NCBI RefSeq assembly: GCF_022763305.1 | Contig: NZ_JALEGT010000102.1 | Span: 1-64,000, forward strand | Reading direction: 5' to 3' | DNA: 64,000 bases | Source of the DNA: Marivita sp. | Lineage (GTDB): Bacteria > Pseudomonadota > Alphaproteobacteria > Rhodobacterales > Rhodobacteraceae | Shown here: piece by piece, positions 11,513-25,391 of the stretch | Layout: each line of letters opens with the position of its first letter | Numbering within the stretch: position 1 is the first letter of the stretch | Made by a program: the position numbers and the translations under genes | Notes under the pieces: model-generated | Databases searched by the model: none | Seen by the model: the letters and a program-made list of their open reading frames with translations, nothing else | What the model was told of the DNA's origin: nothing

Positions 11513-13579
11513 ATGATCCCGCACCGTCATGACGACGATCGGATCGACAAGTATACCGGTCCTTACGAGCGCTGGACATTTTCCGAAGACCTTGGTCGCC
11601 CCTTTACCTTTCCGGCCATCCGCAAGGGACCGTCGACGCATATCACCGCGTTGATGGAGGGCGAAGGCATGCTGGAAAGCACCGAGGATCTCGAGGTCCG
11701 CATCCCGCCGCTGTGGAACGACACCCCGGATGTCACGCCCTTTGCCATGTGGAACCGCTCGGTTGATCCGGACGGGCCCACCGATGCCGAGGATGCGGAC
11801 CTCGCGCGGTGCCTGAATGCTCTCAGTGGCACCCGCTACCGGCTCAACATGCCCATCGACCCGGCCACCTGGCCTGCAACCTATGACCGGGACGGAACGC
11901 CTGACGGCTGGCAGCGCCCCAAGGTGCGGCCCAGCGTGATCATCGGCGTGATCGACGATGGCCTGCCCTTCCTGCACCGCGCCTTCCGCGATGCCGACGG
12001 GGACACGCGGATCAACCTGTGCTGGCTTCAGGCTGCCCGGGCAGACGACTCGGCCGCAGTGCCCTTCGGACGCGAGATCACGGGCGCGCAGATTGAACAG
12101 CTGCGCGCCCAGTACGGCAAGCACGAATTGCGCGCCTATCAGGCGGCCCATGCCATAGACCGCGACCTGCCCGAGGTGGACACGGTGCTGCGCCACCACG
12201 CCACCCACGGAGCCCATATCGCCGGGATCGCCGCAGGGAATGACCCTTATGTCGGGGCATCCGCCCTGCCCGACGATGCAGCGATCATCGCCGTGCAACT
12301 GCCCAACACCATTGCCTGGGATACATCCGGCTTTGGCAAGGAGATGATGATGCTCAGCGCGGTCGAATACATTTTCGAGCGCGCCCGCAGGATCGCACGG
12401 GCGTTCAACTGCGCCGAGATCCCGTTGGTCATCAATTTCAGCTATGGCTGGAGCGCCAATCGCCATGACGGTCAATCCAGTTTCGAACGGGCCGTCGAGG
12501 CTCTGATTACGGATCGGCGCAAGGTCCAGCCCTGCACCGAACTGGTCATGCCCACCGGCAACAATTTCGCCAACGACATGCATGCCCGCTTTTCGGGCGA
12601 TGACCTTGTGGACGGGTCGGTTTCGTTCGGCTGGCAACTCAAGCCAGATGACCGCACGTCGAGCTACCTCGAGATCTGGCTGCCTCCGGACAGCACCCCC
12701 GACGGCTGGACCGTGACGGTCACCCCACCTCCGGGCAGCCCCGCCGGGATGCAGACATGCCTGCCTGTCTCGGCGGATGCGCAACTGCGCGGCGGCGACC
12801 CCCGTCGGTTCGTCGAGATAGAGGTCGGGGACAAGGTTATCGCGCAGTTGTCGGCCGACAAGCATCAGAACACCCGCTGGCGGGTCATGCTCGCGGTCAT
12901 TCCGACGGCCGGCAATCTGGGCGAGGGACGCCGCGCGCCGGTGGGGATGTGGACCGTCACTGTCGATACCGGGACTGACCCGCTTTGCGACGGAGACCAT
13001 ATCGACATCTGGGTGCAGCGCGACGACGATCCGACGCAACTGGGCACGGGTGGACAGCAAAGCTACCTTGTGGACCTCTCCCGTCCCACTCCGCCACGCG
13101 TGCTGGCACCGCCGGTCCTGACGCCGGTGCGCGGCTTTGGCTGTCTCAACGGGATTGGCACCGCGCCGTCCGTGTTCCGCGTGGCAGGCTACATGCAGTC
13201 CACGAAAAAGCCGGTGGCCTATAGTGGCAGCGCATCGGTCGCGCTCGACAGCACCGGCACGCCGGTCGTGGAGGCCAATCTGCCCGCCGCAACAGCCACG
13301 GCGGATCAGGGCTGGTTCCTCTCTGGTCTGCCGTCCATCGGGGTTCTGTCCGGATCAGGCGCGCGGATCATCGGCACGAGCGCGGCAGCTGCCACGGCAA
13401 CCCGTCTGATCGCGTTGAACTTTGCTGCCGGCAAGGCGGCGACTGACGGGTTCGAAAACCTCTATCCCGGCACGCCCCCGTCTGCGCTGACCCTGGCCCG
13501 CACCGGTCCCCTGCGTGTGCCACCCGTCTGTGCTTCGGTGCCGCCACAACCGGGCACCACTGCGGCGCGTGTGTCCTGA
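11513..13579 (+). CDS. S8 (subtilisin-like) serine protease
   Basis: A 688-aa subtilase. The catalytic triad is visible as Asp148 (IIGVIDDG), His232 (HGAHIAG) and Ser623 (IIGTSAAAA), with Asn350 (MPTGNN) as the oxyanion-hole residue. An insert of about 240 residues between Asn350 and Ser623 is rich in Thr, Pro and beta-type sequence and probably forms an extra domain. No signal peptide or recognisable propeptide is seen, so the enzyme may act in the cytoplasm or leave by an unusual route. It starts 3 bp after the PAP2 stop with GAAGG inside the upstream gene, which implies translational coupling. The target is unknown; the PAP2 partner is a candidate. Confidence 0.88.
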   Translation: MIPHRHDDDRIDKYTGPYERWTFSEDLGRPFTFPAIRKGPSTHITALMEGEGMLESTEDLEVRIPPLWNDTPDVTPFAMWNRSVDPDGPTDAEDADLARCLNALSGTRYRLNMPIDPATWPATYDRDGTPDGWQRPKVRPSVIIGVIDDGLPFLHRAFRDADGDTRINLCWLQAARADDSAAVPFGREITGAQIEQLRAQYGKHELRAYQAAHAIDRDLPEVDTVLRHHATHGAHIAGIAAGNDPYVGASALPDDAAIIAVQLPNTIAWDTSGFGKEMMMLSAVEYIFERARRIARAFNCAEIPLVINFSYGWSANRHDGQSSFERAVEALITDRRKVQPCTELVMPTGNNFANDMHARFSGDDLVDGSVSFGWQLKPDDRTSSYLEIWLPPDSTPDGWTVTVTPPPGSPAGMQTCLPVSADAQLRGGDPRRFVEIEVGDKVIAQLSADKHQNTRWRVMLAVIPTAGNLGEGRRAPVGMWTVTVDTGTDPLCDGDHIDIWVQRDDDPTQLGTGGQQSYLVDLSRPTPPRVLAPPVLTPVRGFGCLNGIGTAPSVFRVAGYMQSTKKPVAYSGSASVALDSTGTPVVEANLPAATATADQGWFLSGLPSIGVLSGSGARIIGTSAAAATATRLIALNFAAGKAATDGFENLYPGTPPSALTLARTGPLRVPPVCASVPPQPGTTAARVS

Positions 13580-13586
13580 GCACGCG

Positions 13587-13612
13587 CGGCCCCGGTGTTG
13601 CTCCCGGGGCCG
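13587..13612. terminator. symmetric hairpin between converging genes
   Basis: A perfect 9-bp stem CGGCCCCGG/CCGGGGCCG around an 8-nt loop. It lies 7 bp after the subtilase stop and 16 bp before the stop of the converging permease gene. It lacks a T tract, so it may work with Rho or in both directions. Confidence 0.6.
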
Positions 13613-13628
13613 ACACCCGCGATGGTTA

Positions 13629-14504
13629 TCAGATCAGCCCCGACCTGCGTCTCGAGATCACGACGAGCATCAGGATCGTTACGAGATATGGCAGGCTCGA
13701 CAGGACCTGCGAGGGCAGGCCGACACCCATCGCCTGCGCGGTGAGCTCGCCCAGCGACAGGATACCGAAGAGCAGCGCCCCAAAGGCGACGCGCCCGGTC
13801 TGCCATGTCCCGAACACCACCAGCGCCAGCGCGATCCAGCCCCGCCCGGCGATCATGCCATCCGCCCAGAGCGGCGTGTAGACGGTCGAGGCATAGGCGC
13901 CCGCCAACCCGCACATCGCGCCGCCGAAGGCCACGGCGCAGAGCCGGATGAGAACCACCGGGTAACCGATGGACCGCGCAGCATCTGCATTTTCGCCCAC
14001 AGCCGCGATGATGAGACCCAGCTTGGTGCGGTTCAGCACCCACCAGAGCGCAATCGTGCCTAACACTGCCAACCAGACAACGATATCCTGCGTCAGCAGC
14101 GTCGGCCCGATCAGCGGGATGTCGGACAGAACTGGAATGTCGATCTTCGGCAAGCCACTGATGGTCCGGCTTTCGTACGACTTGCCAAAGAGCGCCGACA
14201 GCCCGAGGCCCAGCACCCCGATGGCGAGGCCCGAGGCCACCTCATTGGCCTTGACGCCGATCACGAGGATCGCAAACAGCATCGCAACCGCCGTGCTGAT
14301 CAGTGCTGCTGCGGCAAAACCCAGAACATGCGAACCGGTATGGAAGACGCAGATGAACGCAATTGCGGCCCCGATCGCCATCATGCCTTCCAGACCGAGA
14401 TTGAGCAGCCCGGTCTTTTCCACAACCATCTCACCCAGTGCCGCCAACAGAAGCGGCAGGGATGCAGCAAGCGTGCCCGCCAGCAGAAACTCCAGACCGC
14501 TCAT
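13629..14504 (-). CDS. ABC transporter permease, nucleoside/purine type (BMP system)
   Basis: A 291-aa multi-spanning permease of the BPD_transp_2 family (YufQ/NupQ-like), with the typical EKTGLLNLGLEGMMAIGA and NRTKLGLIIAAVGENADAARSI segments. Its ATG overlaps the stop of the preceding permease (ATGA). It is the last gene of the long minus-strand operon and partners the permease at 14501-15571 and the double ATPase at 15568-17067. Such systems import nucleosides or purine-like compounds. Confidence 0.92.
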   Translation of the reverse strand: MSGLEFLLAGTLAASLPLLLAALGEMVVEKTGLLNLGLEGMMAIGAAIAFICVFHTGSHVLGFAAAALISTAVAMLFAILVIGVKANEVASGLAIGVLGLGLSALFGKSYESRTISGLPKIDIPVLSDIPLIGPTLLTQDIVVWLAVLGTIALWWVLNRTKLGLIIAAVGENADAARSIGYPVVLIRLCAVAFGGAMCGLAGAYASTVYTPLWADGMIAGRGWIALALVVFGTWQTGRVAFGALLFGILSLGELTAQAMGVGLPSQVLSSLPYLVTILMLVVISRRRSGLI

Positions 14505-15571
14505 GCCGGCACCTTGCGGTCAAACTCGATGCGGAAGCGGATCAGAGTGAAGGTCATCAGGTAGAAGAAGAGCAGCAAGCCCTGGAACACCTCGACCGCC
14601 GCCACCGGCAATCCGGCAGAGACAGTGGCACTGTCGCCGCCGATATAGATCACCGAAATCAGGAAGCTTGACGCGATGATCCCGAGCGGGTTCAGCCCGC
14701 CGACATAGGCGACGATGATCGCCGCGTAGCCGTAGCCGGACGTGACAGAGCGTTGGAGTTGACCAAGCGGCCCGGCAACCTCGCTCGCACCGGCGATGCC
14801 CGCCGCGAGACCACCCAGTCCCAAACCCAGCCAGACCATCTTCGGTGCGGAAAACCCGGCATAAAGGGCGGCGCGCGGCGCGAGGCCCGCGGTCCGCAAC
14901 TGGTAGCCCCGGAAATGGTGCTGCATCATCAGGTAGGCAAAGACGCTCGCCAGCAGCGCGAAAATCAGAGAAATGTTGGTGCGCGTCCCGTCGAACAGGA
15001 TCGGCAACATCGCATTGTCGGGGAACATGACCGTCTGCGGGAAATTGAACCCGCGCGGGTCTTTCCACGGCCCCAGCAGCAGGTAGTTCAGGATCTGCAC
15101 TGCGATCAGCGCCATCATCAGTGTGACAAGGATCTCCGACGCGCCGAACCGCGTGCGCAAGGCTGCGGCAATCAACGCATAGACCGTCCCCCCCAAAGCG
15201 CCGAACGCGATCATCGCGGGCAGCATCATCGGGAAATCCCCGTCCGGGTAATAGACCGGCAGGGCGGAGGCGCAGAGCGCGCCGACAATGAACTGCCCCT
15301 CGGCCCCGATGTTGAACACATTGGCCCGGAAGCCGATGGCCAGCCCCTGCGCGATCAGGAGGAGTGGCGCCATTTTCAGAAGCACTTCGGAAAAGCTGTA
15401 CCAACTCAGGAACGGCTTGAGGAGCAGCGCATGCAACGCCGCACCAGCGTCTTTGCCCAGCGCCGCGAACAGGATGAGGCTCGCAAGGCAGGTCAGGACC
15501 AGCGCCAACACCGGTGCCGTGAACATCGCAAGGCGCGAGGCGGAGTCGCGGCGGATCAGTCGGAGTTTCAC
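14501..15571 (-). CDS. ABC transporter permease, nucleoside/purine type (BMP system)
   Basis: A 356-aa permease of the YufP/NupP class with about eight hydrophobic segments and the family stretches IGFRANVFNIGAEGQFIVGA and LRTAGLAPRAALYAG. The GTG start at 15571 overlaps the ATPase stop (GTGA). Longer in-frame upstream sequence overlaps the ATPase and is ignored. Its stop overlaps the next permease start (ATGA), so both membrane subunits are translationally coupled. Confidence 0.92.
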   Translation of the reverse strand: MKLRLIRRDSASRLAMFTAPVLALVLTCLASLILFAALGKDAGAALHALLLKPFLSWYSFSEVLLKMAPLLLIAQGLAIGFRANVFNIGAEGQFIVGALCASALPVYYPDGDFPMMLPAMIAFGALGGTVYALIAAALRTRFGASEILVTLMMALIAVQILNYLLLGPWKDPRGFNFPQTVMFPDNAMLPILFDGTRTNISLIFALLASVFAYLMMQHHFRGYQLRTAGLAPRAALYAGFSAPKMVWLGLGLGGLAAGIAGASEVAGPLGQLQRSVTSGYGYAAIIVAYVGGLNPLGIIASSFLISVIYIGGDSATVSAGLPVAAVEVFQGLLLFFYLMTFTLIRFRIEFDRKVPA

Positions 15572-17067
15572 GTCGCAGCCCCAATCATGTAGCGCCCGAT
15601 TTCCTGCGGGCTTGTCTCTGCCGCGTCCAGAGCGGGCGACAGATGCCCTTTGTGCAGCACATGCAATTTGCTGCAGATCTCGAACAATTCGTCCATTTCC
15701 TCGGAAATCACGAGGATCGCACAGCCCTGATCGCGCATGTCCAGCAAACGCCTGCGGATCGCGGTCGCGGCTCCGATGTCGACACCCCATGTGGGTTGAG
15801 ACACGAGCATCACGTCCGGGTTCAGCATGATCTCGCGGCCCAGAATGAATTTCTGCAGATTGCCACCCGACATCGCGCCCGCCTCGGCATCCGGTCCCGG
15901 GGTGCGCACATCGAACGCGTCGATGCACTCGCGGGTAAAGGCGCGCTCCACGCTGCGTCGGATGAATCCGCGCGACAGCATTCTGCGACTGTGGGCGGTC
16001 AGAAGGCTGTTGTCCGCCAGTGACATCTCGGGCACAGCCCCGCGCCCAAGCCGTTCCTCGGGCACAAAGGCAAAGCCCAGCTTGCGCCGCGCCATCGGGC
16101 CAAGGTGCCCGACCTTCTTGCCCGTGATCTCGATCATGCCGGGTTCCTGCGCGCGGGTCTCACCGGAAATCAGCGCCGCCAGTTCCTGCTGTCCGTTGCC
16201 GGATATCCCCGCGATCCCGACGATCTCACCACTGCGCAGCTTGAGGTCGATGCCCTCGAGCGTCGTCCCGAACCGGCTGGCGCGTGGGTGGCTCAGCGCA
16301 TTGAGCCGCAGCCGCTCTTCCCCCGGCGGACGCGGCGCGGCATGCGCTACGTTCGGCATCTCGCGCCCGATCATCAACTGCGCCAGCGACCGCGCATCAT
16401 GTTCGCGCGGGTCGACCCGGCCCGTCACCTCACCGCCGCGCAGAACGCTCGCGGTGTCGCAGAGTTCGCGGATCTCATCGAGCTTGTGCGAGATGAACAG
16501 GATCGCCATCCCCTCGGCCTGCAGCTTGCGCAGAGTCTCGAACAGGCGGCGCACGCTTTGCGGCGGCAGGACCGAGGTCGGCTCATCCAGGATCAACAGC
16601 TTGGGATTGAGCAGCAGGCAGCGGATGATCTCCACCCGCTGGCGTTCGCCCACCGACAGCCGATGCACCATCGCGTGCGGATCGACGGACAGGCCGAACT
16701 GGTCCCCGAGGTCGGCGATCTGCTGCGCCAGTTCCGCCGGTTTGCCGGGGATCATCAGCGACACGTTCTGCACGACGCTCAGCGTCTCGAAGAGCGAGAA
16801 ATGCTGGAACACCATCCCGATGCCCAGCGCCTGCGCGTCGGACGGCCGGGCAAGATGTACCTCCTGCCCGTTCCAGTAGACATGCCCCGCATCCGGCTGC
16901 TCGACGCCGTAGATGAGCTTCATCAGGGTGGATTTGCCCGCCCCGTTTTCACCCAGAACGGCATGGATCGACCCCGAATGCACCTCGAGGTCGATCTCTT
17001 TGTTGGCCTGAACGGTGCCGTAGCGCTTGGAGACCTTCGCAAGCCTCAGCAGCGCAGGCTGGCTCAC
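15568..17067 (-). CDS. double ABC ATPase, nucleoside/purine type (BMP system)
   Basis: A 499-aa protein with two fused nucleotide-binding domains, as in NupO/RbsA-type ATPases. The first has an intact Walker A (GENGAGKST), signature LSVGERQR and Walker B LLILDEPTSVLPP. The second has the degenerate P-loop GISGNGQQE, signature MSGGNLQK and a Walker B-like region (DVMLVSQPTWGVD) without the usual Glu, as is common in this class. GTG 17067 overlaps the binding-protein stop (GTGA) and gives VSQPALLRLAKVSKRYG as the start; an upstream ATG at 17103 is inside the previous gene. Confidence 0.92.
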   Translation of the reverse strand: MSQPALLRLAKVSKRYGTVQANKEIDLEVHSGSIHAVLGENGAGKSTLMKLIYGVEQPDAGHVYWNGQEVHLARPSDAQALGIGMVFQHFSLFETLSVVQNVSLMIPGKPAELAQQIADLGDQFGLSVDPHAMVHRLSVGERQRVEIIRCLLLNPKLLILDEPTSVLPPQSVRRLFETLRKLQAEGMAILFISHKLDEIRELCDTASVLRGGEVTGRVDPREHDARSLAQLMIGREMPNVAHAAPRPPGEERLRLNALSHPRASRFGTTLEGIDLKLRSGEIVGIAGISGNGQQELAALISGETRAQEPGMIEITGKKVGHLGPMARRKLGFAFVPEERLGRGAVPEMSLADNSLLTAHSRRMLSRGFIRRSVERAFTRECIDAFDVRTPGPDAEAGAMSGGNLQKFILGREIMLNPDVMLVSQPTWGVDIGAATAIRRRLLDMRDQGCAILVISEEMDELFEICSKLHVLHKGHLSPALDAAETSPQEIGRYMIGAAT

Positions 17068-18158
17068 GACGGCAGCGGCGTGGTCACGCCCGCAACATGC
17101 CAATCCATGCCGATGATCTCGCCATCGGTCATCGCCACGCCATCCGCCACACGCTCGGTGCCCGCCTGATCGGTCAGCGGGCCTTTGAAGACGACGAAAT
17201 CACCGGTTGCGATTTCCGCCTGCTTGGCCTCGATCTGGGCGACCATGTCGGCCGGGATGTCCGGGTTCCAGTCGGCGGTGAAGACCACATCGTCTTCCAT
17301 ACCAAGCCAATAGTTGGCGCTCGGGAAATTCCCGGCGACATGACCATCGACCAGACGCTTGAAATGCGGACCCCAATCGGTGCCGACGACGCCAAGATAC
17401 TTGGTCGGCGCATAGCTCTTCATCGACGAGTTGAGGTTGTAGGCATAGACCCCCGCCTCTTCCGCCACAGCGATCACCGACGGCGTGTCCTGCGCGTTCG
17501 AGAAGAGGATGTCCACATCCTGCGAAATCAGCGCCTTGGCGGCTTCCTGTTCCGACGCGGGGTCGAACCAGCTGTTCACCCAGACGACGCTCATGGTGAT
17601 TTCGGGATCAACCGACAACGCGCCCAGCATGAAGGCGTTGATCGAGGTGATCAGTTCCGGGATCGCAAACGCGCCAACGCAGCCGATCTTCTTGGTTTTG
17701 GTGAGCGACGCGGCGGCCATGCCCATCAGGTAGGTGCCCTGCCAGTATTTGGCAGTGAAGGGGGCAAAGTTCGGCTCGACCATGAAGCCCGAGGCGTGGA
17801 TGATCGACACATCGCGGTTGCGCTTGGCGATCTGGATGCCGCCGTTCTGGTAGCCAAAGGAGCCAAGCAGGAGGACTTTGTTGCCTTCGGACACCAGCCC
17901 GTTGGCGATGCGGTCAGCATCCGGGCCTTCCATGATGTTCTCGAGAACGGTCACTTCGAGCTTGTCGCCATAGGCTTCCTTGACTGTATTCACGCCTTCC
18001 ATCAGCGTGTGCGACCAGCCTACATCGGCGACTGGCGAGGGCAGCACGACGCCCATCTTGAGAACGTCCTGCGCATGGGCGCGCATCGGCAGCGCAAGGG
18101 CGGTTGTGGCGGCCAGTGAGCCCTTCAGAAAACTGCGGCGTTTGAGTGTGTCAGACAT
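17064..18158 (-). CDS. BMP-family substrate-binding protein (Tat signal)
   Basis: A 364-aa binding protein of the basic membrane protein/PnrA family, which bind nucleosides or purines. The N terminus RRSFLKG, with a hydrophobic stretch ending in AHAQ, is a twin-arginine signal peptide. The family core is seen in VLPSPVADVGWSHTLMEGV, LLLGSFGYQNG and GTDWGPHFKRLVDGHV. ATG 18158 has GGGGA upstream; ATG 18164 is an alternative. The start lies inside the deaminase gene (8-bp overlap), tying import to the catabolic genes. Confidence 0.92.
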   Translation of the reverse strand: MSDTLKRRSFLKGSLAATTALALPMRAHAQDVLKMGVVLPSPVADVGWSHTLMEGVNTVKEAYGDKLEVTVLENIMEGPDADRIANGLVSEGNKVLLLGSFGYQNGGIQIAKRNRDVSIIHASGFMVEPNFAPFTAKYWQGTYLMGMAAASLTKTKKIGCVGAFAIPELITSINAFMLGALSVDPEITMSVVWVNSWFDPASEQEAAKALISQDVDILFSNAQDTPSVIAVAEEAGVYAYNLNSSMKSYAPTKYLGVVGTDWGPHFKRLVDGHVAGNFPSANYWLGMEDDVVFTADWNPDIPADMVAQIEAKQAEIATGDFVVFKGPLTDQAGTERVADGVAMTDGEIIGMDWHVAGVTTPLPS

Positions 18159-19548
18159 GGTCATCCCCGTTGGTTGTGTTTGGCAGAATGGTGTGAAGTG
18201 TCTCTTCGGCGGCGTCGAACAGCGCGCCTTCGTCGATCCCCGGAAACGCGCCTTTGTGCCAGACGATGCGGCCGTTGATCATGGTAAGGTCCGTGGGCGC
18301 GCCAACCCCGACCTTGGCCAGAAGGCTGATCGGATCGTGGCGCGTGCCCACGAAATCAAGCTTGCGGGTGTCGATGGCGAACAGATCCGCCGCCATGCCG
18401 GGCCGCAATGCGCCGATGTCGCTGCGCCCAAGCAGCGAAGCCCCGCCTTCGGTCGCGTAGTGCAGGAACCGTCCGGGCACCGGCACGCCGTCCTGCCGGG
18501 TCGAAGCAACGAGGCATTGCAGCATGTAGCCGGAATGGATGCAGTGCATCAGGTTCGAATTGTCGTTCGACGCCGCCCCGTCGCAACCGAGGCCCACCCG
18601 CACGCCCAGCGCGTCCATCGCCGGGATGTCGGTGACTTCGGCCCCGACGAGATAGACCGGCTCGGGGCAATGCGACACGCCGGTGCCAGAGGCCGCCAGC
18701 TTGGCCAGTTCTTCGCGGGTCAGTTCCCATCCATGGGCATAGAAGACGTCCGGCCCGGCGAAGCCGATCTCTTCGCAGTAATCGACAGTCCGCTTTCCGT
18801 GGACCTGTTCGATCACCGGGCTTTCGCCTTCGCCCACATGGCTGTGCAGGATCACGCCCTTGTCGCGGGCCAGCGCCACGGATTGCTCGAATGTCTCGCG
18901 GTAGCAGTTGACCGGTTGGCAGGGCGCAACCGCCACCTGCCGCATCGAGAACGGCGCCGGATCGTGGAACGCGTCGATGGCGCGTTCGCAGGCCCCGATG
19001 AATTCGTCGGTGGACTCCAGCATCTCGTCCGGGATCGTGCTTCCCTCAGATTTCGGCAGCGTGTTGCCCCCACGCCCAGCGTGAAAGCGCATACCCAAGA
19101 GTTCCGCCGCCTCGAATTGCCGGTCGATGATGTGCGACCCGGCATGGCGTGGGAAACAGTACTGGTGGTCGAACGCCGTGGTGCAGCCGTGTTTGATCAG
19201 CTCGGCCATCGCGACGACGGAGCTGTGGTAGAAACAGTCCTCGGTCAGGCGCGAGAAGATCGGATAGATGCGGTCAAGCCACTCGATAACCGAATAGCGC
19301 GTCCAGTCGAGTTCGGCCCGGTTGCGGACGAAGCACTGGAAGAAATGGTGATGCGTGTTGACGAGGCCGGGATAGATGAAATGCCCGGTGGCGTCGATGA
19401 TGTCGGTCCCCTCGGGCGCTTGTAGTGATAGGTCCGGGCCAATCGCGGTGATTGCGCCGTTCTCACACAGGATGTCCTGGTGCCGCAGGACCGGAGCGCT
19501 GGCCGAGGTGACAATCGCCTCGCAGTTCTTGAGAAGGATCGCCGTCAT
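18151..19548 (-). CDS. amidohydrolase, 8-oxoguanine deaminase / AtzB-TrzN-like
   Basis: A 465-aa metal-dependent hydrolase of the amidohydrolase superfamily. The N-terminal metal motif is NTHHHFF, a further ligand region is LHSHVGEGES, the His in FYAHGWEL follows, and the catalytic Asp lies in GLGCDGAASND. This closely follows 8-oxoguanine deaminase and the atrazine-pathway aminohydrolases, which remove amino groups from purine or triazine rings. Its ATG overlaps the GST stop (ATGA) and its 3' end overlaps the binding-protein start. The context with a purine-type transporter and ring oxygenase suggests an N-heterocycle substrate; the exact one is unknown. Confidence 0.85.
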   Translation of the reverse strand: MTAILLKNCEAIVTSASAPVLRHQDILCENGAITAIGPDLSLQAPEGTDIIDATGHFIYPGLVNTHHHFFQCFVRNRAELDWTRYSVIEWLDRIYPIFSRLTEDCFYHSSVVAMAELIKHGCTTAFDHQYCFPRHAGSHIIDRQFEAAELLGMRFHAGRGGNTLPKSEGSTIPDEMLESTDEFIGACERAIDAFHDPAPFSMRQVAVAPCQPVNCYRETFEQSVALARDKGVILHSHVGEGESPVIEQVHGKRTVDYCEEIGFAGPDVFYAHGWELTREELAKLAASGTGVSHCPEPVYLVGAEVTDIPAMDALGVRVGLGCDGAASNDNSNLMHCIHSGYMLQCLVASTRQDGVPVPGRFLHYATEGGASLLGRSDIGALRPGMAADLFAIDTRKLDFVGTRHDPISLLAKVGVGAPTDLTMINGRIVWHKGAFPGIDEGALFDAAEETLHTILPNTTNGDDHV

Positions 19549-20159
19549 GCCGGGTGCGCCAGTTCATGCAGTCGGTGGATGCCCGGCATTTCGATGAACC
19601 CCGGCAGGGACCGGATGGCGCGCATCCAAAGGCGTACAGATGGATACGGATCTAGGCTCACACCCCCATCCGGCGCCAGAGCGGTGTTGGGGAAGCAGGC
19701 GATGTCCGCGATGGTTGGTTTGGAACCGGTGAGGAAGATCAGCCCCTCAAAGCGCTGTTCCGTCAGATGCGCCTCAAGCTTGCGCAGCGCCATGACACCC
19801 GCCGCGCGGGCTTTGTCGATGTCGGCCTCGTAGCCGATCACGTCATGCAGACGGGCAAGACCGAGGCCGTCGTTCAGGTCAGATGCGAAGGCCAGCCAGC
19901 GGTCATCGTCGGCGCTCTGCCATTCCGGATGATCCGCCGTCAGGTGCCGCAGGATGTCGGCGCTGTCGGTCAGCACCGTGTCGCCATCTTGCAGGATCGG
20001 CAGCGTGCCCTTGGGGTTCAGCGCAAGCATCTCGGGCGACTTGTGTTCGCGGGCCGGGTGGAAATTCACCGCCCGCAGGGTCAGCGACTGACCCAGCAGC
20101 GCCGCCATCAGGCGGACCTTGTAGCAACTGGCGCTCAGGACGTAGTCGTAGAGGATCAT
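19545..20159 (-). CDS. glutathione S-transferase-like protein, NdmE-like by context
   Basis: A 204-aa protein with the GST fold: an N-terminal thioredoxin-like domain (LYDYVLSASCYKVRLMAALL, then ALNPKGTLPILQDGDTVLTDS) and an alpha-helical C-terminal domain from about residue 85. The motif ASCYKVR holds the Ser/Cys position of zeta-like GSTs. It overlaps both the Rieske-less oxygenase and the amidohydrolase by 4 bp. In Pseudomonas putida CBB5 a GST-like protein of about this size (NdmE) is a structural partner of the Rieske-less oxygenase NdmC. By position this gene may have that role, but it could be a catalytic GST such as a ring isomerase. Confidence 0.85.
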   Translation of the reverse strand: MILYDYVLSASCYKVRLMAALLGQSLTLRAVNFHPAREHKSPEMLALNPKGTLPILQDGDTVLTDSADILRHLTADHPEWQSADDDRWLAFASDLNDGLGLARLHDVIGYEADIDKARAAGVMALRKLEAHLTEQRFEGLIFLTGSKPTIADIACFPNTALAPDGGVSLDPYPSVRLWMRAIRSLPGFIEMPGIHRLHELAHPA

Positions 20160-20992
20160 GCCGCCACCAGTTGTGCGCCGTAAGTGTAGCCGATTTTCTT
20201 GAGCCAGCGGCGATAGGCGACCGAGGTCATGTCGGCCTGTGTCGGCACCTCCATCCCCGGATCGAGGGGCAGCTTGCGCGGCAACTGGTTTTCGAGGATC
20301 GAGCGGTCCTGCATGAAGATCAGTTGCTGGAAGCTGACCATCTCGGACATGGTCGACTCGTCATCATAGAGCGCCATCCATGGCCAGACCTCGCACCATT
20401 CGTCGGTCAGGGGCTGCACGAACAGCGTGATGATGTCCCACTCACCGGGGCGCGGCGGGCAGGTCTTGTAGAGCACCGAACAGGTCGGCGCGGGCACGCG
20501 GTACATGTATTCCGTAGTGATCCCGCCAGCCGCGGATTTCGCGGCTTGCGGTTGGTAGAACTTCACCTTGGTCGCCCAGACCTCGTCCACCTCTTCGCGG
20601 ATCTTGACGTCGTAGCGGTCCACTTCGGTATGCGGCTCGGCGCCGAGGATGTCGGTGTGCACAAACGGGAAATGCGCGATGTCGAGGAAGTTCTCGACCG
20701 CCCGGAGCGGCGAGCATTTGACTTTGACCGACCCCACATCCACGAGGCGGCGTCCGGGGCTGTCAGCTTCGGGGATGGTGAAGAGATCGCGGTTCGGCTG
20801 GCCGGGGCTGGTCCAGAGATGGCCGAACCGTTCGACCGTGGGCAGCGCGGTTCCGGAGGCGTCCTTGACCCAGCACGCACCGCCATCCCGACCCAAAAAG
20901 ATTTTTTTACCAAGCAGTAAAGTCTCGCGTGGCGCGTCGATGCCCGAGATCATGGCGACGGGATACCAGTGATTGTCGATGGCGGCATTCAT
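20156..20992 (-). CDS. Rieske-less ring-hydroxylating oxygenase catalytic subunit, NdmC-like
   Basis: A 278-aa protein matching the catalytic half of VanA/NdmC-type Rieske oxygenases. The mononuclear-iron facial triad is visible as His107 and His112 in D-x2-H-x4-H (ENFLDIAHFPFVH) with a likely Asp229 (FMQDRSILENQ). Residues 7-60 keep the flanks of a Rieske domain (NHWYPVAMI, RETLLLGKKIFLGRDGGACW, ERFGHLWTSPG), but the C-x-H and C-x2-H cluster ligands are absent, as if cut out. ATG 20992 overlaps the stop of the separate Rieske protein (ATGA). Electrons probably come from that protein. The same architecture occurs in NdmC of the 7-methylxanthine demethylase. Confidence 0.85.
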   Translation of the reverse strand: MNAAIDNHWYPVAMISGIDAPRETLLLGKKIFLGRDGGACWVKDASGTALPTVERFGHLWTSPGQPNRDLFTIPEADSPGRRLVDVGSVKVKCSPLRAVENFLDIAHFPFVHTDILGAEPHTEVDRYDVKIREEVDEVWATKVKFYQPQAAKSAAGGITTEYMYRVPAPTCSVLYKTCPPRPGEWDIITLFVQPLTDEWCEVWPWMALYDDESTMSEMVSFQQLIFMQDRSILENQLPRKLPLDPGMEVPTQADMTSVAYRRWLKKIGYTYGAQLVAA

Positions 20993-21591
20993 GCCGGGAC
21001 CCTTTCCAGAGTTGCGCGCAGCTCTTCGAGCCAGCGGGACACGGCACTGCGATCCGCGTCGGGCGCGGCGAGCGCGTGGATCATGCATTCGCCGTCCGTA
21101 CACGGCTGTACGGCAAGCATAACATCGTAATCAGACACCACCGCGATCGTAGTGAAACCTGCCGCACCGAAATGCGCCGCGAGGTCCGGTGCCGACATGG
21201 ACACGGGCAGCGACCTGACCGTCTGACGCCCTCCCAAAGCGGGCAACGGAGTGTCGGTTTCCGTCAACGACACCCAGATCACCCCACCGGCCTCGATACA
21301 GCGATAGGTCGGCACGCAGATCGTGTCAGGGGGTGTGAGTTTCGGATGGGCCGGGATGTAGTCACACGATCCCGCCTCATTGTATTGCCACCCGTGATAG
21401 ATGCAGGCCAGAGTCTCGCCCCGGACAAACCCGTGCGAGAGGCGCATGCCACGATGGGGACAGCGGTCCGACCATGCATGGTAGTTTCCGCTGGGCGAGC
21501 ACCAGACTGCCAGTTCGGTGTCAGCGATGCGGCTCGGGATGACGACGCCGGGCGGGACATCCTCTTTCAAACCAACAGCAATCCAGTTCAT
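20989..21591 (-). CDS. stand-alone Rieske [2Fe-2S] protein
   Basis: A 200-aa protein with an intact Rieske cluster motif, C44-x-H46 and C63-x2-H66 (CPHRGMRLS and CIYHGWQY), in the arrangement of oxygenase alpha subunits. The catalytic iron-binding domain is missing; instead there is a C-terminal extension of about 80 residues without a known domain. ATG 21591 is chosen over GTG 21597 because GGAG precedes it. It overlaps the Rieske-less oxygenase by 4 bp, so the two together seem to make one functional oxygenase. No reductase is encoded nearby, so electrons must come from an enzyme elsewhere. Confidence 0.87.
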   Translation of the reverse strand: MNWIAVGLKEDVPPGVVIPSRIADTELAVWCSPSGNYHAWSDRCPHRGMRLSHGFVRGETLACIYHGWQYNEAGSCDYIPAHPKLTPPDTICVPTYRCIEAGGVIWVSLTETDTPLPALGGRQTVRSLPVSMSAPDLAAHFGAAGFTTIAVVSDYDVMLAVQPCTDGECMIHALAAPDADRSAVSRWLEELRATLERVPA

Positions 21592-21681
21592 ACTCACTCC
21601 GCCGAAGTCGGGCCGAGTAAGACAGACGGGCTCCGGTCGATCAATAAGACCGCCCTCTCAAGGCGCAGGAAAACCCGGATA

Positions 21682-21699
21682 ATTGCACAAATATTGCAC
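21682..21699. promoter_or_regulatory. direct repeat upstream of the split-oxygenase operon
   Basis: Two copies of ATTGCAC, at 21682-21688 and 21693-21699, are spaced 11 bp start to start, one helical turn. They sit in the AT-rich part of the 138-bp gap between the acylphosphatase-like gene and the Rieske gene, about 90 bp upstream of the Rieske start. This suits a tandem operator for a regulator of the operon. Confidence 0.45.
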
Positions 21700-21729
21700 T
21701 AAGCGATGAAATTGTGATCGCACGGCCCG

Positions 21730-21981
21730 TCAGGCGCACGCAACGGTTGTGATGTCCATGGTGTCGACGAGCACACTTTCCGGTCCGAGACTCACACCAA
21801 GGGCCAGCGCCTGGAGCATTTCTTCGGGGCCTTGCGCCCTGACCTCCAACCCGTCGGGCACGTGCTGCGTCGTGACGTGATCAAGGCCCAGCTTGTGGGC
21901 GTGCCGGGCGATCCAGTTCGGAAAATCCGCACTCTGAACGTGACCAGTCAGGTGAATACGTGCAGACATTTTCTCGGACAT
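21730..21981 (-). CDS. acylphosphatase-like protein lacking catalytic residues
   Basis: An 83-aa protein with the acylphosphatase layout (GHVQ near residue 13, LGL, then a DGLEVRAQG-type strand). The catalytic loop VQGVGFR reads VQSADFP here, so the phosphate-binding Arg is replaced by Pro, and the Asn expected after LGL.GWV is not found (DHVTTQHV). It is therefore probably inactive as an acylphosphatase and may have a binding or structural role. It is 21 bp downstream of the formamidase gene on the same strand. Confidence 0.75.
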   Translation of the reverse strand: MSEKMSARIHLTGHVQSADFPNWIARHAHKLGLDHVTTQHVPDGLEVRAQGPEEMLQALALGVSLGPESVLVDTMDITTVACA

Positions 21982-22002
21982 CTGGATCGCCTCGGGCCTT
22001 GG

Positions 22003-22929
22003 TTAAGAAAGATGCGACTTGGCCATCATCATGTGAACACCTTTCGCGCGGTTCACGGTCTGGGTGATCCGCAAGTCCCCGGCCAGCGAGCAGAGCATAT
22101 AGGCCTCGGCCCGGCTGATCCCGGCGCGGCCCGAGACCACGTCGATCATGCGGCGCAGCGCGATCTCGACGCAGACATCCAGATCGGGATGCATCCCCAT
22201 AGTGATGAGATGCGTCGGCGTTTCTGCCTCGGGATAGGTCATGTCGAGGTCGCGGCGCACGGTCAGTCGGAACCGGCCCTGCAACGCGGTTTCGATAGCG
22301 GTGACGCAGACTTCGCCATCGCCCTGTGCGCCGTGCCCGTCCCCACAGGAGAACAGCGCGCCTTCGGTGTGAACCGGCAGGTAGAGCGTCGTCCCTGCAA
22401 CCAGTTCCTTGTTGTCCAGATTGCCGCCGTGCGCGCGTGGTTCGATGGTCGAAATCCGCCCCCATTCCCGCGGCGGGGCAACTGCCATGACACCGAAGAA
22501 CGGGGCAAGCGGCAGCTTCAACCCCCAAGGCAAAGTCGCCTCGTTCGCATCGGCATCAAGGCGCAGGGTCATACCCTGACGTTCGGGGAAGTCGAGCGGC
22601 AGGGTGCCGGACAGCGGGCGGATGAAGGTGAACCCCCAATCCTGACGCAGCTGGATGTCGAGGATGTCCACCTGCAGAACGTCCCCCGGCATCGCGCCGT
22701 CCACGGCAACGGGACCGGTCAGGATATGGCCCGGCACCTGCGGCACGCCGGTTTCGTGGATCGCCAGCAGTTCGGGCGGGACGTGATAGCCTGCGCCCGG
22801 CAGCACTTCGGGCCCGCCAGAAACCGTGTAGATCGTGACCTCGGCACCGCTGTCTACAGTGGCGACCGGAGTCAGCGTGGCATCGAAAAAGCCCCAGTGA
22901 CAGGTTTTTGGTCCGGCTTCGATGATCAT
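22003..22929 (-). CDS. acetamidase/formamidase family protein
   Basis: A 308-aa hydrolase of the FmdA/AmdA family, which splits short-chain amides to ammonia and acid. The family signatures HGGNLDNKEL and FSCGDGHGAQGDGEVCVTA are intact. ATG 22929 overlaps the M20 peptidase stop (ATGA). In this cluster it could process formamide or a related small amide released from an N-heterocyclic ring; this is inference from context. Confidence 0.9.
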   Translation of the reverse strand: MIIEAGPKTCHWGFFDATLTPVATVDSGAEVTIYTVSGGPEVLPGAGYHVPPELLAIHETGVPQVPGHILTGPVAVDGAMPGDVLQVDILDIQLRQDWGFTFIRPLSGTLPLDFPERQGMTLRLDADANEATLPWGLKLPLAPFFGVMAVAPPREWGRISTIEPRAHGGNLDNKELVAGTTLYLPVHTEGALFSCGDGHGAQGDGEVCVTAIETALQGRFRLTVRRDLDMTYPEAETPTHLITMGMHPDLDVCVEIALRRMIDVVSGRAGISRAEAYMLCSLAGDLRITQTVNRAKGVHMMMAKSHLS

Positions 22930-24092
22930 ACAGGAAGCCTCTGTTCAGCCAGCGTCACCCAGTAGGAACAGCCTGTCGGGATGACCTCGTCGTTGAAATC
23001 GTATTGCGGATGGTGAAGCCCCGGTCCCGGCCCGATCCCCAACTGGATATAGGCGCCCGGGCAGGCTTGCAGCATATAGGCGAAATCCTCGCCCCCCGTC
23101 GTGCGGGGCGCGTCGGTGATGCAATCGCCCGCCACGTCGCGGGCGGCGCTGATGCAATGCTCGGTTTCCGTTTCATGGTTGGACATCACCGGATACGGCT
23201 CTTCGTCAAAGCCCAGTTCGGCCGTTGCGCCATAGCTCTGCGCCGTCAGCTCCGCGATGGCCCCGATCCGCTCCAGCGTCTTGGCGCGCACCTCCATGTC
23301 AAAGCTGCGCACCGTGCCGCGCAGGACGGCGTGTTCGGGGATCACGTTGAAGGCTTCGGATTCGGTGCGGAAGGAGGTGACGGAGACCACCACCGCCTGC
23401 TGCGGGTCGGTGTTGCGCGACACGACGGATTGCAGTGCCATCACGATGGCGGATGCGGCGAGTGTCGTGTCCACCGTGTTGTTGGGTCGTGCGGCATGCC
23501 CGCCCTTGCCGCGCACATTGATATGGAAACTGTCGACGGCGGCATAGAAGGCCCCCGGACGGATCGCGAATTGCCCAAGTGGCAGAAGCGGCGAATTGTG
23601 CAGCCCGTAGATCTCGGAAATGCCGAACCGGTCGATCAGGCCGTCCTGCACCATTGCCTCGGCCCCGGCCCCGCCTTCTTCGGCGGGCTGAAAGACAATG
23701 GCGACCGTGCCGTCGAAATTGCGGGTCTCCGCAAGGTACTGCGCGGCCCCGAGCAGCATCGCAGTGTGCCCGTCATGCCCGCAGGCATGCATCTTGCCCG
23801 GCGTTTTCGAAGCATGCGCCGCGCCTGTGGCTTCGAAGATTGGAAGGGCATCCATGTCGGCGCGAAAGGCGATGGTCTTGCCCGACCGGTTCGACTTTCC
23901 TTTTATCAGCGCCACAACCCCGGTGCGCCCGACCCCTTCGACCACGCTGTCACAGCCAAAGGCGCGCAGCTTGTCCGCCACGATCCCGGCGGTGCGCGGC
24001 AGATCGTATTGCAGCTCCGGATGCTCGTGCAGATCACGGCGCCAGGCGGTGATTTCGGGGTGCAATTCGGCAAAACGATTGCGGATGGGCAT
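22926..24092 (-). CDS. M20 family amidohydrolase (hippurate hydrolase-like)
   Basis: A 388-aa metal-dependent hydrolase of peptidase family M20D (hippuricase, N-acyl-amino-acid or IAA-amide hydrolases). The binding residues appear in MHACGHDGHTAMLLGAA, QPAEEGGAGAEAM and GGEDFAYML. It is the first gene of the group with formamidase and the acylphosphatase-like protein, and begins 81 bp after tRNA-Leu on the same strand. The substrate is unclear. Confidence 0.92.
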   Translation of the reverse strand: MPIRNRFAELHPEITAWRRDLHEHPELQYDLPRTAGIVADKLRAFGCDSVVEGVGRTGVVALIKGKSNRSGKTIAFRADMDALPIFEATGAAHASKTPGKMHACGHDGHTAMLLGAAQYLAETRNFDGTVAIVFQPAEEGGAGAEAMVQDGLIDRFGISEIYGLHNSPLLPLGQFAIRPGAFYAAVDSFHINVRGKGGHAARPNNTVDTTLAASAIVMALQSVVSRNTDPQQAVVVSVTSFRTESEAFNVIPEHAVLRGTVRSFDMEVRAKTLERIGAIAELTAQSYGATAELGFDEEPYPVMSNHETETEHCISAARDVAGDCITDAPRTTGGEDFAYMLQACPGAYIQLGIGPGPGLHHPQYDFNDEVIPTGCSYWVTLAEQRLPV

Positions 24093-24173
24093 AAAGTCTC
24101 CGGTGCCTGATGTGGGTGAATGTCCATATCAGACCCGATATCTGCCAGGGTGGCAAACGGGAAAATCTGAGCG

Positions 24174-24258
24174 TGGTACGGGCGGTGGGACTCGAACCCA
24201 CACGGCACAGGGCCTTCGGATTTTAAGTCCGATATGTCTACCATTCCATCACGCCCGC
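24174..24258 (-). tRNA. tRNA-Leu (anticodon TAA)
   Basis: An 85-nt tRNA on the minus strand with encoded CCA (24174-24176) and discriminator A. The anticodon stem TCGGA/TCCGA closes the loop CTTAAAA, giving anticodon TAA for leucine. The long variable arm (GGCCCTGTGCC) is typical of class II tRNAs. Confidence 0.97.
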
Positions 24259-24343
24259 AACGGGCTATCCCTAGCCGGGCGCGGGGACGAAAACAATGGC
24301 TTGACGACAGCTTGGCTGCACTCCTGCGACACCTGATCCGGGG

Positions 24344-24889
24344 TCAGAGCTTTTCGCCCTCCGGCTCCTTGATCAGGAACCGTTCGCCCAGCCAGGGATT
24401 CAGGGCCACGGCATCCTTCAGGACGGGTTGTGCCTCGTCCTCGCGCCCCAGCGCGATCAGCGTCAACGCCTTGCCGGTGAGCGCACCGGTGTGGCGTGGA
24501 TTCAACGCGATGGCCTGGTCAAGGTCGGGCAAGGCAGCGGGGTAGTCCCCGCGCAGGTAATTCACGAAAGCCCGTTGATTGTAGCCTTCGGCATAGAATG
24601 GACAGTACGAGACAAGCGTGTCGAGCCGGTCCGTCGCGCGCAGATAATCCCCGATGCGCATCGCGCGGAGCGCCTCGTCAAGCATCGATTGCGAAGGTTC
24701 GTCGGGTGCGTCGAGCCATAACTCCCACATCTGGTTCGAAAAGGTGCGCGCGATCATCTCGTTCGGGGCGCGCTGCACCTCGGCGTAAAGACTGTCCAGC
24801 GCTGCCTCGTGGTCGGGAGCGACGGGACAGCCGTCTGCCGACGCACCGGAGGCCGCCAAAACAGCGAGGAGGGACACCAGATACCGCAT
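24344..24889 (-). CDS. secreted TPR-repeat protein
   Basis: A 181-aa protein with a cleavable signal peptide (YLVSLLAVLAASGASA) and a TPR-type helical core, best seen in YAEGYNQRAFVNYLRGDYPA followed by ALPDLDQAIALNPRH, then the next repeat. It is probably periplasmic and mediates a protein contact. It lies between tRNA-Leu and putR, on the same strand as both, and shows no obvious functional link to either. Confidence 0.8.
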   Translation of the reverse strand: MRYLVSLLAVLAASGASADGCPVAPDHEAALDSLYAEVQRAPNEMIARTFSNQMWELWLDAPDEPSQSMLDEALRAMRIGDYLRATDRLDTLVSYCPFYAEGYNQRAFVNYLRGDYPAALPDLDQAIALNPRHTGALTGKALTLIALGREDEAQPVLKDAVALNPWLGERFLIKEPEGEKL

Positions 24890-24920
24890 GCCTGCATTAG
24901 GACCGGCGACACCGCCTCGG

Positions 24921-25391
24921 TCAAGTCACGTTCCCGAAACTCTCTTCCTTGACCGCCTGCATGGCGACATAGGTCGAGGTCGCGGCGACGTGCGGCAGGG
25001 TGGAGATCTTTTCGGCCAGAACCTGACGATAGCTGCGCATGTTCGCGGTCCGCACCTTGAGCAGGTAGTCGAAATTGCCCGCGATCAGATGCGCCTGTTC
25101 GATCTCGGGGATCTTCGCAACCGCCTCGTTGAACGCGGCAAGGGCGGCTTCGCGTGTCTGGGTCATCTTCACTTCGACAAAGGCGATGTGATCGAGCCCA
25201 AGCCGGATCGGATCGAGAAGGGCCCTGTAGCCCTGGATTGCGCCCATTTCCTCGAGCCGCCGGAGGCGCGCCTGAGTGGGGGATTTCGACAGACCGATCC
25301 GTCGGGACAACTCGGTGATCGACACGCGGCCGTCCCGGGCCATTTCCTGAAGGATGGCCCTGTCGAATCTGTCGAGGTCAGAAATAATCAA
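24921..25391 (-). CDS. putR: Lrp/AsnC family regulator, probable PutR
   Basis: A 156-aa Lrp-type protein: a helix-turn-helix (DRFDRAILQEMARDGRVSIT, then ELSRRIGLSKSPTQARLRRL) at about residues 7-50 and an AsnC/RAM ligand-binding domain after it. There is no ATG; TTG 25391, behind GAAGG at 8 nt, fits the family N terminus. GTG at 25430 is an alternative. It is divergent from putA, the arrangement in which PutR activates proline catabolism in response to proline. Confidence 0.87.
   Translation of the reverse strand: MIISDLDRFDRAILQEMARDGRVSITELSRRIGLSKSPTQARLRRLEEMGAIQGYRALLDPIRLGLDHIAFVEVKMTQTREAALAAFNEAVAKIPEIEQAHLIAGNFDYLLKVRTANMRSYRQVLAEKISTLPHVAATSTYVAMQAVKEESFGNVT

What the first reader, a model, noticed from the sequence alone, without database searches (positions are those of the whole stretch)
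18151..21591. Split Rieske oxygenase operon resembling the NdmC/NdmE/NdmD purine N-demethylase
Four genes joined by 4-bp overlaps encode a stand-alone Rieske protein, a catalytic subunit that keeps the iron triad (D104-x2-H107-x4-H112, D229) but has lost the Rieske ligands, a GST-like protein and an 8-oxoguanine-deaminase-like hydrolase. Known: in Pseudomonas putida CBB5, NdmC lacks a Rieske cluster, NdmE is a GST-like partner, and NdmD supplies the cluster. Here the cluster is on its own 200-aa protein without a reductase. I infer a new type of three-part N-demethylase or ring oxygenase.
Basis: partly seen in the sequence, partly recalled or inferred. Interest (0 to 1): 0.88.

Follow-up and report, generated by a model that had tools for sequence, protein, structure and literature searches.

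The report
Split Rieske demethylase in methylguanine operon
A widely conserved bacterial operon joins a Rieske oxygenase that has split into two half-degenerate proteins, plus a GST-like helper, to an importer and an enzyme that looks like the recently described dimethylguanine hydrolases, which suggests a pathway for eating methylated guanine bases.

Summary
Four genes with three 4-bp overlaps encode a stand-alone Rieske protein, a Rieske-less catalytic subunit, a GST-like protein and an amidohydrolase. With a BMP-type ABC transporter they form an eight-gene block, in the same order in 76 of 80 relatives (the other 4 are cut by contig ends). The catalytic and GST-like proteins are 43% and 42% identical to NdmC and NdmE of a caffeine cluster; the Rieske protein matches only NdmD's Rieske part (35%), and no NdmD-type reductase was found nearby. 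Both halves look like relics of a full-length oxygenase: the Rieske protein keeps a vestigial catalytic domain, the catalytic subunit a vestigial Rieske fold. The amidohydrolase fails the curated cut-off for 8-oxoguanine deaminase (374 of 532 bits) but has all 13 published key residues of N2,N2-dimethylguanine hydrolases (NdmH); 8-oxoguanine-deaminase-like neighbours have 8. In 295 genomes of the family all 9 with this hydrolase also carry the split oxygenase beside it. Best reading: a reductase-less NdmCDE variant that N-demethylates methylated guanines or xanthines; substrate and ring position (N7 likeliest) are inferred. New variant of a known kind.

The parts
20989..21591 (-). Stand-alone Rieske protein, 200 aa: intact [2Fe-2S] site (C44, H46, C63, H66) plus a vestigial catalytic domain (about residues 112-200); no reductase domain
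20156..20992 (-). NdmC-like catalytic subunit, 278 aa: iron ligands H107, H112, D229, bridging D104; vestigial Rieske fold (about residues 7-47) without cluster loops
19545..20159 (-). NdmE-like GST-fold protein, 204 aa
18151..19548 (-). Amidohydrolase, 465 aa, with the residue signature of N2,N2-dimethylguanine hydrolase (NdmH)
17064..18164 (-). BMP/PnrA-type substrate-binding protein with Tat signal (start not settled)
15568..17103 (-). ABC transporter ATPase (start not settled)
14501..15580 (-). ABC transporter permease 1 (start not settled; named after its annotated R. leguminosarum relative, 60% identical)
13629..14504 (-). ABC transporter permease 2 (named after its annotated R. leguminosarum relative, 62% identical)

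Best explanation
The operon imports methylated guanine bases and strips their methyl groups. A BMP-type ABC transporter brings in the base or nucleoside (inferred). The amidohydrolase is a dimethylguanine hydrolase that removes the (di)methylamino group at C2 and leaves a xanthine (residue signature tested, activity not). The Rieske protein, the catalytic subunit and the GST-like protein form one NdmCDE-like oxygenase: electrons from an unlinked reductase reach the [2Fe-2S] cluster on the Rieske protein, cross through D104 to the iron of the catalytic subunit, and an N-methyl group of the purine ring leaves as formaldehyde (inferred from homology; N7 is likeliest because that is what NdmC does). 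Xanthine then goes to the ordinary xanthine dehydrogenase. The two oxygenase proteins are complementary relics of full-length Rieske oxygenases: one kept the cluster, the other the catalytic iron, and each keeps a remnant of the lost domain, probably to preserve head-to-tail contacts (remnants shown, reason inferred).
For: Eight-gene order in 76 of 80 loci, the other 4 cut by contig ends; 4-bp overlap Rieske/catalytic in 80 of 81 and catalytic/GST in 77 of 81. Homology to NdmC 43%, NdmE 42%, NdmD's Rieske part 35%. Of 41 further loci with a Rieske-less subunit 38 have both a Rieske partner and a GST in the fetched stretch, and the modules are permuted, with the reductase once fused to the catalytic subunit (L116) and once a separate gene (L143). 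Relic domains: hhalign scores 38.0 and 56.3 against 60-shuffle maxima of 15.1 and 16.9; model of the Rieske protein matches full-length oxygenases. NdmH signature 13 of 13, invariant in 79 of 79 and in 5 of 5 further operons. Hydrolase found only with the split oxygenase, 9 of 9 in 295 genomes. Guanine deaminase near 9 of the 41; xdhA/xdhB beside one such operon (L151). Own genome has xanthine dehydrogenase. The pair Q222/F226 aligned to NdmA's N282/F286 positions is the same in NdmC (the role and numbers of the NdmA residues are recalled).
Against: No activity was tested and no complex modelled. No reductase is linked, and the best own-genome candidate (C48) lies beside another Rieske oxygenase. 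The catalytic model is weak around the iron site (pLDDT under 50 at 108-121 and 230-250). The match of the vestigial catalytic domain spans only 24 columns; the two narrow alignments alone gave only a weak match (probability 6%). Support for one origin of Rieske-less subunits is 88/99, not conclusive. 3 of 41 loci lack a nearby partner (L093, L126, L157). Two related clusters (L136, L137) carry a hydrolase over the 8-oxoguanine deaminase cut-off, and L148 and L157 a hydantoinase and an adenosine deaminase, so the wider family may have other substrates. NdmH itself already removes methyl groups at N2, so the need for the oxygenase is inferred.
Confidence: 0.6

Rival explanations
1. A molybdenum-free purine C8 hydroxylase like HpxD: the split oxygenase turns xanthine, made by the hydrolase, into urate, or guanine into 8-oxoguanine.
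For: HpxD is a distant relative (29% identity) and acts on purines; the hydrolase product is xanthine; L136 and L137 have 8-oxoguanine-deaminase-like neighbours.
Against: The own genome has a full xanthine dehydrogenase hit (1220 bits, cut-off 850) and L151 has xdhA/xdhB beside the operon. The catalytic subunit is far closer to NdmC (43%) than to HpxD, and the GST partner is an NdmCDE trait.
Confidence: 0.13
2. The operon serves another modified heterocycle (for example a pterin, cytokinin, hydantoin or alkylated pyrimidine); the hydrolase signature is shared but its natural substrate differs.
For: Enzymes of the AtzB/NdmH cluster are promiscuous; BMP-type proteins bind varied ligands (recalled); relatives of the oxygenase sit by a hydantoinase (L148) or an adenosine deaminase (L157).
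Against: The 13-residue signature is complete and invariant in 79 of 79; guanine deaminase or NdmH is present in 14 of 41 survey loci; the known relatives NdmC and HpxD act on purines.
Confidence: 0.15
3. The Rieske protein does not serve the catalytic subunit next door but is an ordinary ferredoxin, and the catalytic subunit gets electrons from elsewhere.
For: Stand-alone Rieske ferredoxins are common partners of oxygenases (recalled); no complex was modelled.
Against: The catalytic subunit has no cluster of its own; the Rieske protein matches full-length oxygenases including a relic catalytic domain, not a ferredoxin; 4-bp coupling in 80 of 81; in NdmD-like relatives the same part is the cluster donor.
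Confidence: 0.07

Closest known systems
NdmCDE 7-methylxanthine N7-demethylase of Pseudomonas putida CBB5 (PMC4408171)
   Same: Rieske-less catalytic subunit, cluster on another protein, GST-like partner; homologous part by part (43%, 35%, 42% to the cluster on pTmex-577K)
   Different: There the Rieske domain is fused to the NADH reductase (NdmD); here it stands alone with a vestigial catalytic domain and no linked reductase, with NdmH and a BMP transporter in place of NdmA/NdmB
ndmCDE-like clusters of unknown function in Sinorhizobium and Mesorhizobium (PMC4408171; L094, L119 here)
   Same: Same module family, BMP transporter, purine neighbours
   Different: Rieske-reductase fusion, one or two catalytic subunits, guanine deaminase in L119, no NdmH
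N2,N2-dimethylguanine hydrolases NdmH (PMC13054789)
   Same: All 13 named key residues at constant offset
   Different: Published without a Rieske, operon or transporter context (0 mentions of these terms)
SxtT / GxtA Rieske oxygenases (solved structures)
   Same: Closest solved sequence and fold for both halves
   Different: Single full-length proteins that act in saxitoxin biosynthesis
HpxD molybdenum-independent xanthine hydroxylase
   Same: Purine-acting Rieske oxygenase of a related class
   Different: Full-length with its own cluster and a separate reductase; 29% identity

Membership tests
NdmCDE-type N-demethylase | Catalytic subunit of the NdmC family without Rieske ligands | tested here: met
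   43% identity over 1-272; no Rieske match
NdmCDE-type N-demethylase | NdmE-like GST partner encoded together | tested here: met
   42% identity over 1-194; adjacent; in 80 of 80 related loci
NdmCDE-type N-demethylase | Rieske cluster fused to the NADH reductase (NdmD) | tested here: not met
   Rieske protein matches NdmD only at 8-140; no NdmD-type reductase within about 10 kb in L012-L092
NdmCDE-type N-demethylase | The three proteins form one complex that N7-demethylates 7-methylxanthine | not testable with these tools
   only single chains could be modelled; no assay
Canonical Rieske oxygenase (VanA class) | Cluster and mononuclear iron in one polypeptide | tested here: not met
Canonical Rieske oxygenase (VanA class) | Iron ligands and bridging Asp conserved | tested here: met
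   D104, H107, H112, D229 in 81 of 81
N2,N2-dimethylguanine hydrolase (NdmH) | 13 key residues named for poNdmH | tested here: met
   13 of 13, invariant in 79 of 79; 8 of these also occur in 8-oxoguanine-deaminase-like enzymes, 5 discriminate
N2,N2-dimethylguanine hydrolase (NdmH) | Hydrolysis of N2,N2-dimethylguanine | not testable with these tools
   no assay
8-oxoguanine deaminase (NCBIfam PRK08203) | Score over the curated cut-off | tested here: not met
   374.3 against 532 bits; neighbours in L136 and L137 pass with 580.6 and 703.2
HpxD-type xanthine hydroxylase | Full-length oxygenase with its own cluster | tested here: not met
   split; 29% identity to annotated HpxD

The most novel reading that the evidence does not exclude
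This is a dedicated pathway by which marine and root-associated bacteria eat methylated guanines released from eukaryotic RNA (dimethylguanine of tRNA, 7-methylguanine, even the 2,2,7-trimethylguanine of RNA caps): the hydrolase clears C2 and the split oxygenase clears the ring nitrogen, so two enzymes turn a trimethylguanine into xanthine. The oxygenase would be a new kind of assembly, made of two reciprocally degenerate Rieske paralogues plus a GST; two half-dead subunits cannot alternate in the usual threefold ring, so it should form an even-numbered or heterodimer-based complex.
Probability: 0.3. Interest if true: 0.85.

Novelty: new variant of a known kind. Interest (0 to 1): 0.63.

Why it matters
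NdmCDE is described as the first reported Rieske oxygenase whose Rieske domain is split off and the first that needs a GST-like protein (PMC4408171); what the GST does is open. Here a simpler version without a linked reductase is conserved across Rhodobacteraceae and rhizobia, in an operon that points to a substrate class. Three questions become testable: how a Rieske oxygenase works when its two metal sites lie on separate relic paralogues, what the GST is for, and whether bacteria have a route for methylated guanine bases. It also gives a genomic setting to the NdmH enzymes, whose authors announce follow-up on genomic context.

Tried and rejected
8-oxoguanine deaminase as identity of the hydrolase: rejected on the curated cut-off and on residues. 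One Rieske gene broken by a frameshift: rejected, the split is shared by 81 of 81 loci and each half has its own relic. Stand-alone Rieske proteins as one lineage: rejected, AU p 2e-47, so the reductase fusion changed more than once. A known RNA leader such as the xanthine riboswitch: window 13000-25000 gave only a tRNA and one match far under its cut-off. Profile comparison of the two narrow alignments gave only a weak N-terminal match (probability 6%); broader sets were needed. The pdb_via library was not available. A complex could not be predicted: the tool folds single chains. The original 2013 NdmCDE paper is not held (I assumed its DOI), so I rely on the 2015 review. The NdmC, NdmD and NdmE compared here are those of the pTmex-577K cluster, named by me from its 91% NdmA match; the CBB5 letters of these three were not seen. 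Paper searches: 8-oxoguanine deaminase + Rieske, 7-methylguanine + Rieske, and Rieske + BMP family + GST + amidohydrolase each found 0. NdmC + NdmE + Rieske found 5, by title and abstract start mostly on caffeine or methylxanthines. Broader searches listed only part of their hits (15 of 42, 12 of 18, 8 of 4,765, 10 of 15); no listed title or abstract start concerns this operon. and 102/111 used crude ORF calling; in L148-L157 a greedy caller missed genes, mended by tblastn.

Dropped rows: one search kept 80 of 458 relatives. One search kept loci with over 35% identity among L012-L092 (Rieske 81, catalytic 81, GST 81, hydrolase 79, BMP 78). The 41-locus survey leaves out L092 (window type), L095 and L115 (genes in pieces) and L144, L145 (full-length); two contigs are counted twice because they hold two copies. 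L095 and L115 were left out of both trees; L128 and three long or odd full-length rows were left out of the second tree. In one search the reductase part of one row drew in many unrelated reductases, so its tally of 104 of 398 genomes is not used; I followed 17 of its places.
Full report
What is there. The window lies on contig C21 of a 4.43 Mb genome, 99.7% complete; the nearest relatives of the catalytic subunit are from Marivita and similar Rhodobacteraceae. On the minus strand, in transcription order, stand a 200-aa Rieske protein, a 278-aa catalytic subunit, a 204-aa GST-like protein, a 465-aa amidohydrolase, a BMP-family substrate-binding protein, an ABC ATPase and two permeases (the permeases are named after annotated relatives). 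Overlaps between the first four genes are 4, 4 and 4 bp. A scan of genome contigs found 458 relatives of the catalytic subunit, of which the tool kept 80, by record title mostly Rhodobacteraceae and rhizobia. In 76 of these 80 all eight genes follow in the same order; the other 4 (L043, L044, L064, L082) are cut by contig ends. A start codon that overlaps the previous gene by 4 bp is present between Rieske and catalytic genes in 80 of 81 loci (the 80 plus R. leguminosarum L092) and between catalytic and GST genes in 77 of 81. No match to the NdmD-type reductase (E 1e-8) was found in L012-L092, which reach up to 10 kb on each side; a reductase of another type could be missed. In 35 diverse loci only one further neighbour family recurred in 7 or more, a generic ABC ATPase in 9.

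The two oxygenase proteins. Both match the same solved enzymes: the Rieske protein aligns to SxtT residues 11-128, the catalytic subunit to 109-333. The four Rieske ligands and E100, N101, D104, H107, H112, D229 are invariant in 81 of 81. The Rieske protein model (pLDDT 95.1) matches full-length SxtT/GxtA over 256-276 alignment columns with TM-score 0.77-0.81 by query length, more than its Rieske domain alone should give. Its residues 112-200, as a 44-row profile, match the catalytic-domain profile with hhalign score 38.0 (probability 89%), against a maximum of 15.1 in 60 column shuffles and 13.9 for the reversed profile; the matched stretch is short, 24 columns. Residues 1-74 of the catalytic subunit (49 rows) match the Rieske profile with score 56.3 (97%) against a maximum of 16.9 in 60 shuffles, over 41 columns that end where the cluster loops would begin. 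The catalytic model is good at the N-terminus but weak near the iron site; it too matches full-length SxtT/GxtA and then NdmA/NdmB. So each half is a relic of a full-length oxygenase with opposite losses. Full-length relatives (L144, L145) stand beside the same kind of BMP transporter. That the relics are kept to hold head-to-tail contacts is inference. In solved Rieske oxygenases cluster and iron of neighbouring subunits lie about 12 A apart in threefold assemblies (section 6 of PMC12445004); strict alternation of two half-dead subunits cannot close in a ring of three, so the assembly should differ. This too is inference.

Relation to NdmCDE. A caffeine-type cluster was found on P. putida plasmid pTmex-577K, with an NdmA 91% identical to the solved NdmA fragment and with formaldehyde genes. 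Against its proteins the catalytic subunit is 43% identical to NdmC (1-272), the GST-like protein 42% to NdmE (1-194) and the Rieske protein 35% to NdmD (2-132 only). In a tree of 57 rows the 49 Rieske-less subunits, NdmC included, lie on one side of a branch against 8 full-length enzymes, with support 88/99, which neither shows nor rejects one origin; the window type is its own clade (98/93) and NdmC sits in another subclade (100/99). Stand-alone Rieske proteins do not form one clade (AU p 2e-47). Of 41 further loci with a Rieske-less subunit, 38 have both a Rieske partner and a GST in the fetched stretch; the exceptions are L093, L126 and L157. A reductase match appears in 12 of 41: fused to the Rieske protein in 10, fused to the catalytic subunit in Variovorax (L116), a separate gene in L143. 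That the Rieske, catalytic, reductase and GST modules are permuted but kept together is good sequence evidence that they act together. By sampling, the catalytic subunit occurs in 9 of 385 genomes of the class and 21 of 295 of the family.

The hydrolase and the substrate. NCBIfam and PDB put the hydrolase nearest to 8-oxoguanine deaminase, but under the curated cut-off (374.3 against 532 bits). Drexler et al. (PMC13054789; outline, sections 7 and 8 and term passages seen) report N2,N2-dimethylguanine hydrolases and name 13 key residues. All 13 match the window protein at a constant offset of three and are invariant in 79 of 79 relatives and in 5 of 5 further operons. Eight of the 13 are shared with 8-oxoguanine-deaminase-like enzymes; 7ww2 and the L136 and L137 neighbours differ at the other five, and two guanine deaminases match at 5 of 13. 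In 295 family genomes, one per genus, the catalytic subunit occurs in 21 and the hydrolase (E <= 1e-150) in 9; all 9 have both, on one contig within about 2 kb (Fisher p 7e-12). Elsewhere a guanine deaminase is near: 9 of the 41 survey loci, with NdmH in 5. One NdmH operon (L151) has xdhA and xdhB beside it; the own genome has xanthine dehydrogenase and a HODM_asu-like protein, which might use the dimethylamine released (recalled role). Against a single substrate class: L136 and L137 carry a hydrolase that passes as 8-oxoguanine deaminase, L148 a hydantoinase and L157 an adenosine deaminase.

Verdict. Shown by computation: the conserved eight-gene unit, homology to NdmC, NdmE and NdmD's Rieske part, complementary domain loss, no linked NdmD-type reductase, the NdmH signature and its tight linkage. 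Inferred: complex formation, N-demethylation, ring position, import of methylated guanine, origin of the substrate in eukaryotic RNA. It works like NdmCDE but fails one defining feature, the Rieske-reductase fusion, so I call it a variant and not a member. The 2015 review already notes ndmCDE-like clusters of unknown function, mostly in Sinorhizobium and Mesorhizobium. In the listings seen no title or abstract start joins NdmH with a Rieske oxygenase; the library lacks most subscription papers.

Noticed in passing
window 21730-24092 (-): An acylphosphatase-like ORF (21730-21969, PF00708 31 bits), a formamidase-like gene (22003-22929) and an M20 hydrolase (22926-24092) stand upstream of the operon; the latter two are close by at 78-99% identity only in 6 of 80 loci (L012-L015, L017, L018), so they are not core.
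   Followed up: partly
window 24177-24258 (-): A tRNA gene lies just upstream of this neighbourhood (Rfam 61.7 bits).
   Followed up: no
window 11513-13579 (+): A 688-aa ORF facing the transporter genes looks by eye like a subtilisin-type serine protease; not tested.
   Followed up: no
L151 6422-15136: An NdmH-type operon stands beside xdhA and xdhB, both over their curated cut-offs, a direct genomic link from dimethylguanine hydrolase to xanthine oxidation.
   Followed up: yes
L116 8127-11274: In Variovorax the catalytic subunit is fused to the reductase while the Rieske protein stands alone, the reverse of NdmD.
   Followed up: partly
L144 9332-10321 (-) and L145 9430-10413 (+): Full-length Rieske oxygenases, 39% and 35% identical to the catalytic subunit, stand beside BMP-type ABC transporters: living examples of the unsplit form.
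   Followed up: partly
L136 8224-11821: A hydrolase over the 8-oxoguanine deaminase cut-off, a Rieske-less catalytic subunit and a guanine deaminase stand in a row.
   Followed up: no
L115 11851-14617 and L095 11098-16656: Relatives on P. putida pPp1290 and an S. meliloti pSymA have these genes in several ORFs, either broken or mis-sequenced; described only.
   Followed up: no
L093 13977-14843: Roseicitreum antarcticum pRA01 has a lone Rieske-less catalytic subunit with no Rieske, GST or transporter of this set nearby.
   Followed up: no
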